NCBI RefSeq assembly: GCF_016863315.1
Contig: NZ_BOOQ01000002.1
Location: forward strand, 496,001 to 560,000
Source: Planotetraspora silvatica
Lineage (GTDB): Bacteria > Actinomycetota > Actinomycetes > Streptosporangiales > Streptosporangiaceae
Reading direction: 5' to 3'
DNA: 64,000 nt
In this document: positions 36,398-60,315 of the stretch, in pieces
Numbering within the stretch: the first letter of the stretch is position 1
Layout: each line of letters starts with the position of its first letter
Notes under the pieces: generated by a model
Told to the model about the DNA's origin: nothing
Seen by the model: the letters and a program-made list of their open reading frames with translations, nothing else
Database searches by the model: none
Position numbers and translations under genes: made by a program

Positions 36398-37108
36398 ATG
36401 AACGCGAGCCGTACCGCGAGAGAGCGGGTCAGGGCGGAGTTGATCCGGGAGATCACCGACATCGCGCGCCGCCACCTGGCGACGGACGGAGCCGGAGGAC
36501 TGTCGCTCCGCGCCGTCGCGCGGGACATGGGGATGGTCTCGTCGGCGATCTACCGGTACTTCCCGAGCCGCGACGATCTGCTGACGGCACTGATCATCGA
36601 TGGATACAACGCCATCGGCGAGGCCGTGGAGATCGCCGACACGGGATGCGCGCGGGACGACTTCACCGGGCGCTGGCTGGCCGTTTGCCATGCCGTACGG
36701 ACCTGGGCCCTGGACCACCCCCACGAGCACGCCCTGCTGTACGGCTCGCCGGTGCCGGGCTACCAGGCGCCCGAGGACACGATCGGACCGGCCACCCGGT
36801 ACACGGTGGTTTACGGGCGGATCATCTCGGAGGCCCACGTGGCCGGCCGCCTGACTCCGCCCGACATGTGCCCGGCACCTCCCGAGGTGTTGTCGTCCGA
36901 CGCCGAAGCGGTGCGACAGGTCATGCCCGGCGTCTCGGACGACGTGGTGGCGCGCGGGATCGTCGCCTGGACCGGACTGTTCGGGATGGTGAGCTTCGAG
37001 TTGTTCGGCCAGTTCAACAATGTGATCACCCACCGGCGAGAGCTCTTCGAGCACAACATGCTGTGCCTGGCCCACCTGATCGGCCTACCCCCCACCCCCG
37101 GCGCGTGA
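36398..37108 (+). CDS. TetR-family repressor (WHG-type C-terminal domain)
   Basis: A 236-residue protein with the N-terminal helix-turn-helix GLSLRAVARDMGMVSSAIYR YFPSRDDLL and a C-terminal domain of the WHG type. Its divergent neighbours are the DUF2568/SDR genes, and the two palindromes lie just 35-80 bp upstream of its ATG. Its stop codon is contributed by the first 53-bp repeat unit (37104), so the gene ends at the array boundary. Confidence 0.9.
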   Translation: MNASRTARERVRAELIREITDIARRHLATDGAGGLSLRAVARDMGMVSSAIYRYFPSRDDLLTALIIDGYNAIGEAVEIADTGCARDDFTGRWLAVCHAVRTWALDHPHEHALLYGSPVPGYQAPEDTIGPATRYTVVYGRIISEAHVAGRLTPPDMCPAPPEVLSSDAEAVRQVMPGVSDDVVARGIVAWTGLFGMVSFELFGQFNNVITHRRELFEHNMLCLAHLIGLPPTPGA

Positions 37109-37274
37109 TCATGCACAGGTTCGGGGGGCGCGCCCTGACCGGCGCATTCACCGTTCGTGATCATGCACACTTTCGGCGCGACATCGTCCCACCTGCGCAT
37201 ACACAAGCCGTGATCATGCACGAATTCGGCGGCACACCGCCTCACCTGCTTAAACGAGAGTCGTGATCATGCAA
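37104..37274 (+). repeat. 53-bp repeat array, forward orientation (3.2 units)
   Basis: Cores CGTGATCATGCAC start at 37104, 37156, 37209 and 37262; spacing is 52, 53 and 53 bp. Each full unit also carries TTCGG at offset 17-21 and a (G/C)ACC(N)GC block at offset 35-41; the rest varies. The fourth unit is cut after the core by a hairpin. The first unit provides the TGA stop of the TetR gene. The units read in the sense of that gene. 53 is not a multiple of three, so the array is not coding. Confidence 0.95.
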
Positions 37275-37310
37275 TGAAGGCGGCATCCCGATTACGGGGT
37301 GCCGCCTTCA
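37275..37310. terminator. Hairpin between the two oppositely oriented repeat arrays
   Basis: A 16-bp stem with one G-U pair (37275-37290 with 37295-37310) and a tetraloop ATTA. It starts directly after the core of the fourth forward repeat unit. It probably terminates both TetR (forward) and leuA (reverse) transcripts. Confidence 0.75.
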
Positions 37311-37370
37311 ACCGCTCCGTCACCACATCTCACGCGTCTGCCGTGCGCTCGTCTCCGCGAATCACCCATG

Positions 37371-37595
37371 CTGCATGATCACGAACGCCAACCGCGCCGG
37401 CCAGCGCGCATCTCCACGAATGCGTGCATGATCACGTCAGACATCGGTGCCGGTCAGCGCACACATCTCCGAACGCGTGCATGATCACGAACGGTGTGTG
37501 CGCTGGTCAAGCCCCACCCTCACGAACTTGTGCATGATCACGGCCGGTGTTCGGGCTGGTCAAAGGCCATGATCCCGAACCTGTGCATGATCACG
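37371..37595 (-). repeat. 53-bp repeat array, reverse orientation (5 units)
   Basis: Cores GTGCATGATCACG start at 37424, 37477, 37530 and 37583, with a diverged fifth at 37371. Spacing is exactly 53 bp throughout. Read on the minus strand each unit is the same as in the forward array, with TTCG at 17-21 and GACCNGC-type at 35-41. The fifth unit has a few extra bases before the TTCG. The units are in the sense of leuA, whose stop codon is 15 bp away. Nothing else lies between the two arrays apart from the hairpin. Confidence 0.95.
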
Positions 37596-37609: not shown

Positions 37610-39436
<1,827 letters not shown>

Positions 39437-43303: not shown

Positions 43304-45020
43304 CATCGAGCGGTCGCGTTACGCGGCCCTGTACGGCCCGACCACGGGCGATCGGGTGAGGCTGGCCGACACCGACCTGTTCATCGAGGTCACGGAAGAT
43401 CTGTCGATGGGCCCTTCGGGGGCGGGCGACGAGGTGGTCTTCGGCGGCGGCAAGGTCATCCGCGAGTCGATGGGCCAGGCCCGCACGACCCGTGCCGACG
43501 GCGCGCCCGACCTCGTGATCACCGGGGCGGTGATCCTCGACCACTGGGGCGTCGTCAAGGCCGACATCGGCGTGCGCGACGGGCGGATCGTCGCCATCGG
43601 CAAGGCGGGAAATCCCGACACGATGGACGGCGTGCACCCCAGCCTGGTCATCGGACCGTCGACCGAGATCCTCGCGGGCAACGGAAAGATCATCACAGCC
43701 GGGGCCGTGGACTCCCACGTCCATCTCATCGCCCCGCAGATCCTCGACGAGGCCCTCGCCTCCGGCATCACCACGATCATCGGTGGCGGCACCGGTCCGG
43801 CCGAGGGCACCAAGGCGACCACGGTGACCGGGACGTGGTACCTCGCCCGGATGCTGGAGTCGCTGGACTCGTATCCGATCAACGTGGCACTGCTCGGCAA
43901 GGGCAACACGGTCAGCACCGAGGGCCTGCTGGAACAACTGCGCGCCGGAGCCTCCGGGTTCAAGCTGCACGAGGACTGGGGCACCACTCCGGCGGCGATC
44001 GACGCCTGCCTGAGCGTCTGCGACGCCACCGGCGTGCAGGTGGCCATCCACACGGACACCCTGAATGAGGCGGGGTTCGTCGAGTCGACGCTGAAGGCCA
44101 TCGGCGGCCGGGTCGTCCACGCCTACCACACCGAGGGCGCGGGAGGCGGGCACGCCCCGGACATCATCAAGGTCGCCTCCCACGCCAACGTGCTGCCCTC
44201 CTCCACCAACCCCACGCGGCCGCACACGGTCAACACCCACCACGAGCATCTCGACATGCTCATGGTCTGCCACCACCTGAACCCGTCGATCCCCGAGGAT
44301 CTGGCGTTCGCCGAGTCGCGCATCCGGCCCACCACGATGGCGGCCGAGGACGTGCTCCACGACATCGGCGCGATCTCCATGATCGGCTCGGACTCGCAGG
44401 CGATGGGCCGGGTCGGCGAGACGATCATCCGTACCTGGCAGACCGCGCACGTCATGAAGGCACGGCGTGGCACACTGGGCGGCGAACCGGGCAATCCGGC
44501 GGACAATCTCCGCGCTCGCCGCTACATCGCGAAATATACGATCAATCCGGCTATCGCCCATGGGCTGGACGCCGAGGTCGGCTCGGTCGAGGTCGGCAAG
44601 CTGGCGGATCTCGTGCTCTGGAGCCCCGCCTTCTTCGGTGTGAAGCCCGACCTGGTCGTCAAGGGCGGCGTGATCGCCTACGCCCAGATGGGCGACGCGA
44701 ACGCCTCCATCCCGACCCCGCAGCCGGTCCTCCCCCGGCCGATGTTCGGGGCGGCCCCGGCCACGGCGGCCGCGACGTCCCTGCACTTCGTGGCGCCCCT
44801 GGCCATCGAGGACGGGCTGGCCGACCGCCTGGCCGTACGACGCCGGCTGGTGCCGGTCGCCGACGTGCGGAGCCGGCACAAGGACTCCATGCCCCTCAAC
44901 GGCGCCCTGCCGGCGATCGAGGTGGATGCCGACACGTTCACCGTCCGCATCGACGGTGAGCCGATCGAGCCTGCCCCCGCCGAGCGGCTGCCGATGGCGC
45001 AGCTCTACTTCCTCTTCTGA
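43296..45020 (+). CDS. ureC: Urease subunit alpha (catalytic)
   Basis: A 574-residue alpha chain. Metal and active-site residues are all visible: HVHLIAPQ (nickel His pair), GFKLHEDWG (carbamylated Lys, about 223), [26 protein letters not shown] and the flap [20 protein letters not shown] (Cys about 325). Length and motifs match an active nickel urease. It starts at GTG inside the end of ureB and is followed by ureF. Confidence 0.98.
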
Positions 45021-58160: not shown

Positions 58161-58973
58161 ATGTACGGGCAGGACGTGCTTTCCGGAGACTGGCGGCGCC
58201 CCAAGCGGGGGCAGATCCCCAAGGTCCCGGCCGAACCGGACCTCGTGGTCGAGGACGCGGAAGGCCGCTTCTGCGGCGCCGTGGTGGCCTGCGACAAGGA
58301 GGCCGTCACCCTGGAGGACCGGTTCGGGCGACGGCGGGTCTTCCCCCTCGTGCCCGCCGGGTTCCTCCTGGACGGCAAGCCCGTGACCCTGGTGCGGCCG
58401 GCCGCCGCGCCGCAGGGCGCCAAGCGGAGCGCCTCGGGCTCCGTCGCGGTGGAGGGCCTGCGCGCCCGGGTGGCGAGGGAGAGCCGGATCTACGTGGAGG
58501 GCGTGCACGACGCCTCCCTCGTGGAGAAGATCTGGGGCCACGACCTGCGCGTGGAAGGTGTGGTGGTCGAGTTCCTCGAAGGCGTCGACGATCTGCCGGC
58601 CATCGTGGCGGAGTTCGCCCCCGAGCCGGGCAGGCGCCTCGGGGTGCTGGTCGACCATCTCGTCCCGGGCTCCAAGGAGAGCAGGATCGCGGCCCAGGTG
58701 ACCGGGGACCACGTGCTGATCGTGGGACACCCGTACGTGGACATCTGGCAGGCGGTCAAGCCGTCGGCGCTCGGTATCGCCGGGTGGCCGGACGTCCCTC
58801 GCGGGATCCCGTGGAAGGAGGGCGTGATCGCCGCTCTCGGCTGGCGGATGGACCCTCAGGAGGCGTGGCGGCACATCCTCGGCCGGGTCGAGACGTTCGC
58901 CGACCTCGAGCCCGAACTCCTCGGCCGCGTCGAAGAACTGATCGACTTCGTCACCGCCCAATCCCCCGCGTGA
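58161..58973 (+). CDS. DUF3097 family protein
   Basis: A 270-residue protein with the family's conserved stretches: YGQDVLSGDWRRPKRGQIPK, RIYVEGVHDASLVEKIWGHD (Toprim-like acidic region), GVLVDHLVPGSKESRIAAQV and GHPYVDIWQAVKPSALGI. The Toprim-like EG...D pattern suggests a nucleic-acid enzyme or binder; no activity is established. Its TGA stop (58971-58973) is part of the first 53-bp repeat unit. Confidence 0.88.
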   Translation: MYGQDVLSGDWRRPKRGQIPKVPAEPDLVVEDAEGRFCGAVVACDKEAVTLEDRFGRRRVFPLVPAGFLLDGKPVTLVRPAAAPQGAKRSASGSVAVEGLRARVARESRIYVEGVHDASLVEKIWGHDLRVEGVVVEFLEGVDDLPAIVAEFAPEPGRRLGVLVDHLVPGSKESRIAAQVTGDHVLIVGHPYVDIWQAVKPSALGIAGWPDVPRGIPWKEGVIAALGWRMDPQEAWRHILGRVETFADLEPELLGRVEELIDFVTAQSPA

Positions 58974-59087
58974 TCATGCACACCTTCGGCGCGAGGCCAC
59001 CCGACCAGCTCAAACCTCCGTCGTGATCATGCACACCTTCGGCGCCAGGCCGTCCGACCTGCGGGAACATCAACCGTGATCATGCAC
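58969..59087 (+). repeat. 53-bp repeat array, second locus (3 units)
   Basis: Cores CGTGATCATGCAC start at 58969, 59022 and 59075, exactly 53 bp apart. Units 1 and 2 share TTCGGCG at offset 17 and CCGACC(A/T)GC at 33-41; unit 3 keeps only the core before the hemW stop (59095). Unit 1 supplies the DUF3097 stop codon. The array is in the sense of DUF3097, and the flanking genes are convergent. No stem-loop terminator is present here. Confidence 0.95.
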
Positions 59088-59094
59088 GAAACCG

Positions 59095-60315
59095 CTACGG
59101 CGTCAGATCACGCACCAGAGCGTCGGCGAGCAGCCGCCCGCGCAGGGTGAGCACGGCCCGTCCCCGCTTGAACGGCTCGACCTCGAGCAGGCCGTCCCCC
59201 AGCGCCCTGGCGCACACCGTACGCGCCTGAGTGGGCAGGTCGGACAGCGGGAACCCGGAGACGAGGCGGAGCTCCAGCATGATCCGCTCGACGGCCCGGT
59301 CCTCGGCGGTCAGTTCCTCCCTGGCGTGCCCGGGCGAGGCGCCCGACGCCAGGCGGGACGCGTAGGCCGCCGGATGCTTGACGTTCCACCACCGGGTGCC
59401 CCCGACATGGCTGTGCGCCCCCGGGCCGACGCCCCACCAGTCCCCGCCGGTCCAATAGAGCAGGTTGTGGCGGCAGCGCGCCTCGTCGGCGGCCGCCCAG
59501 TTGGAGACCTCGTACCACTCGAGGCCCGCGGCCGAGAGCATCTCCTCGGCGATGAGGTACCGGTCGGCGGCGACGTCGTCGTCCGGCATCGGCAGCTCAC
59601 CACGGCGGATGCGCGCGGCGAGCCGGGTGCCGTCCTCGACGATCAGCGAGTAGGCCGACACGTGGTCGGGCCCGGCGGCGAGGGCGGCCGCCAGCGAGTC
59701 GCGCCAGTCGTCGTCGGTCTCCCCCGGGGTGCTGTAGATCAGATCCAGGTTGACGTGCTCGAAACCGGCCTTCCTCGCCTCCTGTACGGCCTGCTCGGGC
59801 CGGCCTCGGCTGTGCCTGCGGTCGAGCACCTTGAGCACGTGCTCGCTGGCGCTCTGCATGCCGAAGCTCATCCGGTTGAAGCCGCCCTCCCGCAACGCCT
59901 CCAGGTAGGCCTGGTCGACGGATTCGGGATTGGCCTCGGTGGTCACCTCCGCGCCCGGCGCCAGGCCGAACTCGTCGTCGATCGCGCCGAGCACCCGCAC
60001 CAGGTCGGCCGCGGGCAGCAGGGTCGGCGTGCCGCCCCCGAAGAACACGGTCTCCACGGGCAGGGCGGCCGTTCCGAGCACACGCCGCGCCAGCCGTACC
60101 TCTTCGATCGCCGTGGCGGCGTAGTCCCGCTGCGACGCCCCCGGGCCCAGCTCGGCGGCGGTGTAGGTGTTGAAGTCGCAGTAGCCGCACCGCGTGGCAC
60201 AGAACGGGACATGCACATAAAAACCGAACGGGCGTGAACCAAGCCCGTCGAGCGCGGTCTGCGGCAGGTCGCCGGACGCGGGAACGGGATCACCGTCGAG
60301 AAGGGCGGAAGGCAC
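59095..60315 (-). CDS. hemW: Radical SAM heme chaperone HemW
   Basis: The product is 406 residues from the GTG at 60315 (MPSALLDGDPVPASG). The open frame continues upstream but resembles no protein there. Radical SAM site CATRCGYCDFNTYT (CxxxCxxC), FFGGGTPTLLPA and the HemW-type VNLDLIYSTPGETDDDW, then NLLYWTGGDWWGVGPGAHSH. HemW inserts heme into respiratory proteins and was earlier annotated as oxygen-independent coproporphyrinogen oxidase. It sits next to hrcA-dnaJ as in other actinobacteria. It converges with DUF3097 across the repeat array. Confidence 0.94.
   Translation of the reverse strand: MPSALLDGDPVPASGDLPQTALDGLGSRPFGFYVHVPFCATRCGYCDFNTYTAAELGPGASQRDYAATAIEEVRLARRVLGTAALPVETVFFGGGTPTLLPAADLVRVLGAIDDEFGLAPGAEVTTEANPESVDQAYLEALREGGFNRMSFGMQSASEHVLKVLDRRHSRGRPEQAVQEARKAGFEHVNLDLIYSTPGETDDDWRDSLAAALAAGPDHVSAYSLIVEDGTRLAARIRRGELPMPDDDVAADRYLIAEEMLSAAGLEWYEVSNWAAADEARCRHNLLYWTGGDWWGVGPGAHSHVGGTRWWNVKHPAAYASRLASGASPGHAREELTAEDRAVERIMLELRLVSGFPLSDLPTQARTVCARALGDGLLEVEPFKRGRAVLTLRGRLLADALVRDLTP

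What the first reader, a model, noticed from the sequence alone, without database searches (positions are those of the whole stretch)
37104..37595. Two facing arrays of a 53-bp repeat with exact five-turn periodicity around a hairpin
Nine cores of CGTGATCATGCAC occur here: four forward (37104, 37156, 37209, 37262), five reverse (37371, 37424, 37477, 37530, 37583). All but one spacing is exactly 53 bp. That is 5 helical turns at 10.5 bp, so every core lies on the same face of the DNA. Two more blocks (TTCGG at offset 17-21, GACCNGC at 35-41) are conserved; the remaining bases are not. This mix of conserved and free positions, with strict phasing, looks like a protein-binding array or a dispersed repeat under selection. 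The arrays flank a 16-bp-stem hairpin. It could be a nucleoid or topology element at a convergent gene pair. Size and intergenic position recall mycobacterial MIRU elements, but the sequence is unlike anything I can name.
Basis: partly seen in the sequence, partly recalled or inferred. Interest (0 to 1): 0.85.

Follow-up and report, generated by a model that had tools for sequence, protein, structure and literature searches.

The report
Phased repeat arrays after gene ends
Hundreds of genes in these soil bacteria seem to be followed by short rows of the same DNA signal spaced 53 letters apart, an old and selected but unexplained feature that looks like a landing strip for a protein marking where genes end.

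Summary
The 8.66-Mb genome (Planotetraspora-type) holds 698 exact GTGATCATGCAC, reversed control 0. In 590 kb sampled, 24 arrays of 3-5 cores have spacing 53 (68) or 52 (6). Arrays sit at gene 3' ends: 19 of 24 leave a same-strand stop, in 8 the core's TGA is the stop; gaps over 100 nt with arrays: 10 of 35 convergent, 7 of 120 tandem, 1 of 75 divergent. They are old: 11 of 11 and 11 of 12 comparable regions carry arrays in two relatives; cores are conserved and indels rare inside units. Core dialects differ by clade in the same frame; the core recurs with looser spacing in other families. No RNA covariation, no Y1 (REP-type) transposase in this genome, no match in viral contigs or plasmids. 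Best reading: DNA-level binding arrays forming a boundary at transcript ends; binder unknown. ArgR is a testable candidate with mixed evidence: the core lies in an ARG box of an EMSA-shifted S. coelicolor fragment.

The parts
36398..37108 (+). TetR-family regulator gene; its stop codon TGA is bases 3-5 of the first core
   Evidence: PF00440, PF13305
37104..37274 (+). forward array: cores at 37104, 37156, 37209, 37262; spacing 52, 53, 53
37275..37310 (.). hairpin, 16-bp arms 94% complementary, terminator-like; a similar stem follows leuA in relatives (by eye)
37371..37595 (-). reverse array: core 5' ends at 37595, 37542, 37489, 37436, 37383; spacing 53 x4; leaves the stop of leuA
37610..39337 (-). 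leuA (2-isopropylmalate synthase)
   Evidence: PF00682, PF22615, PF08502
58161..58973 (+). DUF3097 gene; its stop TGA is inside the first core of the second array
58969..59087 (+). second array, three cores at 58969, 59022, 59075; fills the gap up to 7 nt before the converging gene
59095..60216 (-). radical SAM gene converging on the second array
   Evidence: PF04055

Best explanation
A genome-wide family of oriented DNA binding-site arrays that mark gene 3' ends. Each 53-bp unit presents three conserved blocks (CGTGATCATGCAC, TTCG, GACCTGC) whose centres lie about 11.5, 19.5 and 22 bp apart up to the next core, so roughly on one face of the DNA. A sequence-specific protein, whose preference drifts by clade, binds 3-5 units side by side. 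The resulting row of protein just past the stop codon acts as a boundary: it stops or slows RNA polymerase coming out of the gene, and between convergent genes keeps the two transcription units apart. Shown: sites, spacing, place, orientation bias, age, selection on core and on spacing, clade-wide differences of the core. Inferred: that double-stranded DNA is what is recognised, that one protein does it, and the boundary function.
For: 698 exact cores, control 0. In 590 kb the same-strand pairs of cores with at most one mismatch within 300 bp all lie at 52/53, 105/106, 158/159 or 211/212 bp, although adjacent units share only 54% at offsets 20-52 against 45% for units of different loci: the frame outlived the sequence. 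G000 against G004: identity core .961, rest of unit .866, spacer .776; 3 indel events in 1928 aligned bases of the unit rest (1.6 per kb) against 16 in 812 of neighbouring spacer (19.7 per kb); against G003 7.6 and 30.1 per kb. Arrays in 11 of 11 comparable regions of G004 and 11 of 12 of G003, out of 13 regions tried. In 23 of 24 arrays the nearest called gene boundary on at least one side is a stop; 19 of 24 leave a same-strand stop (18 within 43 nt). Gaps over 100 nt with arrays: 10 of 35 convergent, 7 of 120 tandem, 1 of 75 divergent; Fisher convergent against tandem 6.5e-4, non-divergent against divergent .0085. In 4 of 10 convergent array gaps at most 33 nt remain outside the arrays, little room for another terminator. 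Core quality falls with distance from the stop: mean mismatches .21.08.46.89, 1.0 (n 24, 24, 24, 19, 7). Clade-wide core differences in the same frame, also at the same leuA site. No covariation of the candidate stem: mean paired .584 against .601 by row shuffles over 168 units; the strongest couplings are between neighbouring bases.
Against: No binder was identified and no transcript data were seen. Four of 24 arrays run from a gene start towards a stop and one from start to start; for one of the 19 that leave a stop the nearest called stop is 2632 nt away. Tandem against divergent alone is not significant (p .156), nor is convergent against tandem in G004 (.129) or G003 (.079). At leuA a terminator-like hairpin coexists with the arrays. 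Strong hairpins are not significantly rarer in array gaps: 2 of 10 against 17 of 42 (p .29), 1 of 5 against 10 of 22 in G004, 2 of 6 against 10 of 32 in G003. Own arrays fold more stably than shuffles (z mean -2.40, n 18) and than control gaps (-1.18, n 95), as an RNA reading would predict; one 4-bp stem (offsets 23 with 48) stood out in an uncorrected scan. Other spacings occur: 21 bp twice in G004, 30-35 bp six times in G003, 30-59 in G421. The 10.6-bp harmonic of AT content is the highest but barely so. In the core itself indels against G004 are 3.6 per kb, more than in the unit rest.
Confidence: 0.42

Rival explanations
1. The binder is ArgR, the arginine repressor: array cores are ARG boxes, and ArgR hexamers bound at gene ends act as an architectural protein or are titrated there.
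For: An S. coelicolor fragment shifted by ArgR in EMSA contains CTCTCCGTGATCATGCACCC, listed there as an ARG box of 11.8 bit. With a matrix from the other 36 model boxes of that table, the best hit in own-genome units has mean 9.68, in one register in 46 of 55 units, against 2.82 for shuffled units (2.8% of shuffles reach 9.68). Predicted argC operators of G111 and G120 read TGCATGATCATGCAG (2 of 12 genomes scanned), sharing TGATCATGCAG with the core. One ArgR gene in 19 of 20 genomes tested, none found in G243.
Against: Genomes without a match to the array patterns (G110, G112, G125, G384) have the same single ArgR. Of 17 ArgR sequences read, 11, all in the family and with different dialects or none, are identical over VTQATLSRDLDELGALK and all 17 share TLSRDL (that this is the DNA-reading part is recalled; for G000 and G003 the script took an antisense frame). 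The own argC box (CGCATAGTCATGCAG) lacks TGATCATGCA. The core's left half is CGT where those two operators have CAT. TTCG and GACCTGC are unexplained. Hand-composed strings score 6.6 for the own dialect, 5.5 for G369 and -0.6 for G423. The paper marks no differential transcription for that S. coelicolor site.
Confidence: 0.17
2. A topology element like BIMEs: arrays between converging genes recruit gyrase (a BIME role recalled) or a nucleoid protein to remove positive supercoils.
For: Enrichment in convergent gaps; regular spacing. That REPs and BIMEs bind several proteins is stated in the abstract of PMC2817692.
Against: Tandem gaps also carry arrays; a clade-specific core suggests a sequence-specific protein rather than gyrase (inference); the AT periodicity is marginal.
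Confidence: 0.15
3. An RNA-level 3' UTR signal: the repeated GUGAUCAUGCAC motifs bind a protein or RNase that protects or trims mRNA ends.
For: 19 of 24 arrays lie in sense after a stop codon; at leuA they lie between stop and hairpin; arrays fold more stably than shuffles in G000 (z -2.40, n 18), G001 (-2.00, n 5) and G421 (-1.78, n 10).
Against: No covariation of the candidate stem; folding is near or below the control (-1.18, n 95) in G371 (-1.33, n 11), G105 (-1.01, n 9), G120 (-0.66, n 6) and G243 (-0.34, n 9); near-absence of indels in variable positions is not expected of single-stranded spacers; 5 of 24 arrays are not in sense orientation.
Confidence: 0.14
4. A selfish dispersed repeat spread by a transposase, without function.
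For: Patchy distribution, 14 of 341 family genomes with the paired pattern; high copy number.
Against: Arrays at orthologous places are old and their cores conserved above the spacer; no Y1 transposase in 8 of 12 genomes tested, the own genome among them, while G110, without arrays, has 10 matches; no match in viral contigs (exact paired pattern) or plasmids. Other transposase families were not searched.
Confidence: 0.07

Closest known systems
REP / BIME elements with RAYT transposases
   Same: Short, high-copy, extragenic, clade-specific repeats, regularly spaced, suggested to matter for chromosome organisation and termination (abstract of PMC2817692)
   Different: Head-to-tail direct repeats, not alternating palindromes; Y1 transposase absent from the own genome and from 8 of 12 tested
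MIRU of mycobacteria (recalled)
   Same: Unit about 53 bp, intergenic, oriented, close to stop codons (recalled)
   Different: No open frame through the unit (53 is not a multiple of 3, TGA in each core); units strongly diverged with a kept frame
ARG boxes of ArgR in Streptomyces
   Same: The core lies in an ARG box of an EMSA-positive fragment
   Different: Hundreds of copies after genes, extra TTCG and GACCTGC blocks, fixed 53-bp frame
Sal-box / TTF-I terminator arrays of rDNA (recalled)
   Same: Works like: several oriented protein sites directly after a gene
   Different: Eukaryotic, one locus type; no homology claimed or tested
TAACTGA direct repeats of Beggiatoaceae (PMC4679880, abstract and outline seen)
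   Same: Intergenic direct repeats, many sets per genome, patchy across taxa
   Different: Heptamers, mostly just upstream of start codons (abstract); here after stop codons with a 53-bp period

Membership tests
REP/BIME-RAYT | Y1 (IS200/IS605-like) transposase gene in the genome | tested here: not met
   PF01797 has no match in G000 and in 8 of 12 genomes tested (matches in G001, G242, G243, G110); control positive in 5 of 14 known genomes, E. coli among them
REP/BIME-RAYT | palindromic units in alternating orientation | tested here: not met
   units are direct repeats within an array; only facing arrays are inverted to each other
MIRU | open reading frame through the unit (recalled) | tested here: not met
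   period 53, TGA in the core
CRISPR array | unrelated spacers between repeats | tested here: not met
   the 40 bp between cores hold conserved blocks; cas genes were not searched
Rfam RNA family | match above gathering score | tested here: not met
   none at the arrays of the window; at E up to 1 only a sub-threshold match at 37670-37713, in leuA
structured RNA element | covarying base pairs | tested here: not met
   one uncorrected 4-bp stem scan hit
ARG box (ArgR operator) | sequence match to the ARG-box model | tested here: inconclusive
   own units mean 9.68; hand-composed strings: own dialect 6.6, G001 15.1, g80 13.5, G423 -0.6
ARG box (ArgR operator) | binding by ArgR in vitro | not testable with these tools
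   EMSA of an S. coelicolor fragment holding the same 13-mer is reported; none of an array

The most novel reading that the evidence does not exclude
An undescribed actinomycete system of phased, oriented DNA sites at gene ends, read by a dedicated (or moonlighting, possibly ArgR) protein that builds rows of protein as transcription boundaries at hundreds of genes, with a recognition code that shifts clade by clade: a bacterial counterpart of insulator arrays.
Probability: 0.3. Interest if true: 0.92.

Novelty: new variant of a known kind. Interest (0 to 1): 0.78.

Why it matters
How transcription ends between converging genes in high-GC actinomycetes is poorly understood (recalled). Here is a signal at roughly 350 places per genome (extrapolated from 24 arrays in 590 kb), conserved and phased, with natural dialects that could be swapped. 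It makes the question of which protein reads the gene end testable by one pull-down, and it gives a possible reason for some 70 kb of intergenic DNA in such a genome (same extrapolation, about 200 bp per array).

Tried and rejected
REP/RAYT: no Y1 transposase in the own genome. RNA stem of offsets 9-20 with 31-42: no covariation. Arrays replacing terminators: an early 1 of 7 against 10 of 26 did not become significant with more data (2 of 10 against 17 of 42, p .29). Helical quantisation of spacing in G421: 100 listed spacings; outside the main mode (n 40) no preference. A recalled Micromonospora variant GTGATCAAGA: 0 pairs in the 6 genomes of the family that I guessed (f21), 2 pairs in G423; 1 of 16 genomes. 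De novo search for 53-phased words in 17-60 kb each of G009, G019, G034, G125, G028: no comparable core, one two-place word in G019. Special function of flanked genes: 19 genes beside arrays scanned, 18 with a Pfam match, metabolic, regulatory or of unknown function. Viral contigs (exact paired pattern) and plasmids: none; the phage record collection was not searched. Left out of the array counts: 4 lone cores with one mismatch in C2:1-400000. Literature: 12-mer (2 papers), 10- and 11-mers (25 of 129 listed), GTGATCAAGAG, Planotetraspora with repeat and intergenic, general terms (1 of 1, 7 of 8, 15 of 19 and 8 of 16 listed), 53-bp repeats: no report of these arrays seen in these listings of an open-access library.

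Full report
Observation. The nine cores, their strands and spacing are as described, and a second array lies at 58969-59087. The window is G000:C2:496001-560000 of an 8.66-Mb genome in 117 contigs. The exact 12-mer GTGATCATGCAC occurs 360 times on one strand and 338 on the other, the reversed control 0. The five genomes held for the genus have 698, 652, 623, 231 and 165 copies.

Anatomy. I called genes in 590 kb of the own genome (C2:1-400000, the window, C5) with a codon-usage caller written for this purpose. There are 24 arrays of 3-5 cores, spacing 53 (68 times) or 52 (6 times); four lone one-mismatch cores in C2 were not counted as arrays. Same-strand pairs of cores with at most one mismatch within 300 bp all fall on multiples of this period. 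In relatives other spacings occur too: 21 bp twice in G004, 30, 31 or 35 bp six times in G003. From 168 units of exactly 53 nt in G000, G003 and G004, partly orthologous, the consensus is CGTGATCATGCACaggTTCGg.g....gcc..ctGACCtGcgc..ac.c..... Core mismatches rise from the stop-proximal to the distal end of the array (.21.08.46.89, 1.0).

Place. 19 of 24 arrays leave a same-strand stop codon, 18 of them within 43 nt and one with the nearest called stop 2632 nt away; in 8 of the 19 the TGA of the first core is the stop codon itself, as for the TetR and DUF3097 genes of the window. Four run from a gene start towards a stop, one from start to start. Of gaps over 100 nt, 10 of 35 convergent, 7 of 120 tandem and 1 of 75 divergent hold arrays (convergent against tandem p 6.5e-4, tandem against divergent p .156). 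G004 shows 5 of 19, 8 of 75, 0 of 43 and G003 6 of 28, 7 of 88, 0 of 49; these samples are not independent, and convergent against tandem alone is not significant in either (p .129.079). The gap at 58974-59094 contains hardly more than the array. At leuA a hairpin lies between the facing arrays; by eye a similar stem follows leuA in relatives whose arrays are short or degenerate. Genes beside arrays are metabolic, regulatory or of unknown function.

Age and selection. For 13 array regions of C2 I sought both flanks in stretches of G004 and G003. Of 11 regions with both flanks in G004, all carry arrays there, with equal core counts in 10; of 12 in G003, 11 carry arrays. G000 to G004: identity core .961, rest of the unit .866, spacer .776, adjoining coding .931; indel events per kb 3.6, 1.6, 19.7 and 6.0. 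G000 to G003: identity core .848, rest .640, spacer .597, coding .773; indels 4.9, 7.6, 30.1 and 7.1 per kb. Adjacent units of an array share 54% at offsets 20-52, units of different loci 45%; 1 of 42 adjacent pairs exceeds 75%, so most units are not recent duplicates. Together this says that both the core and the distance between cores are kept by selection.

Dialects. In the family, 14 of 341 genomes in 5 genera have pairs of GTGATC-N-TGCA at this spacing. The sequence after GTGATCATGCA differs by clade: CAGGTTCGG in G000, G003 and G004, GAAGTTCGG in G001, TTCC in place of TTCG in G105; and g80 and g69 have GTGATCTTGCA followed by GAAACTCGCA or often GTTTGTCGCA (few units). G001 has 3 pairs of the exact ...CAC form but 733 of the 10-mer form (slightly different patterns). 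The array after leuA exists in all five genomes of the genus and, in the other dialect, in G120. In one printed locus each of G243 and G120 the facing arrays meet in GTGATCTTGCA-AT-TGCAAGATCAC or a one-base variant. In a class sample of 246 genomes 21 match; besides G000 and G111, convincing are G371 (14 pairs) and G421 (11 pairs), with the same core and other following sequence, while the other 17 have one or two matches each. In regions chosen for such pairs, 8 of 10 arrays of G421 but only 6 of 11 of G371 follow a stop codon. Spacing in G421 is loose, 30-59. G369 has 22-bp repeats with the same core.

DNA or RNA. Row-shuffle tests show no pairing beyond column composition for the candidate stem; the strongest mutual information is between neighbouring bases, though a scan of all 4-bp stems had one outlier, offsets 23 with 48, uncorrected for the many stems tried. 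Arrays fold more stably than shuffles in G000 (z -2.40), G001 (-2.00) and G421 (-1.78), near or below the control gaps (-1.18) in G371 (-1.33), G105 (-1.01), G120 (-0.66) and G243 (-0.34). I read this as favouring a DNA signal, not as proof.

Binder. The exact core occurs in a Streptomyces coelicolor fragment shifted by ArgR (PMC5839063; section 8 and passages seen). Scoring with the table's other model boxes supports resemblance in one register, and predicted argC operators of 2 of 12 genomes contain TGATCATGCAG, but not that of the own genome. Against it, ArgR is single-copy in array-bearing and array-free genomes alike, with the same TLSRDL region in all 17 sequences read. I keep it as the most concrete lead, not as the answer.

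Verdict. A real, old, selected, genome-wide array family at gene ends, with a mechanism that is inferred: a row of bound protein acting as a transcription boundary. I saw no description of it in the searches listed under Tried and rejected.

Noticed in passing
window 43456-43750 (-): Rfam match RF02514 (5' ureB sRNA), 64.7 bits against a cut-off of 40.
   Followed up: no
L188 (G034), after the leuA stop: A different tandem repeat with period 48 follows leuA in a relative (autocorrelation .60 at 48).
   Followed up: no
G369:C9:47885-48247: A run of 22-bp repeats GTGATCATGCAGCCGCTCGGCC with the same core over at least 363 bp (listing capped).
   Followed up: no
L273 (G243) and L275 (G120): Facing arrays meet in a 24-bp palindrome GTGATCTTGCA-AT-TGCAAGATCAC, in L275 with one arm ATGCA.
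   Followed up: partly
L307-L314, L316, L317, upstream of argC: Two ARG-like boxes 56-57 bp apart lie upstream of argC in 10 of 10 family genomes looked at, not in G371 or G421; the distance is near the array period, perhaps by chance.
   Followed up: no
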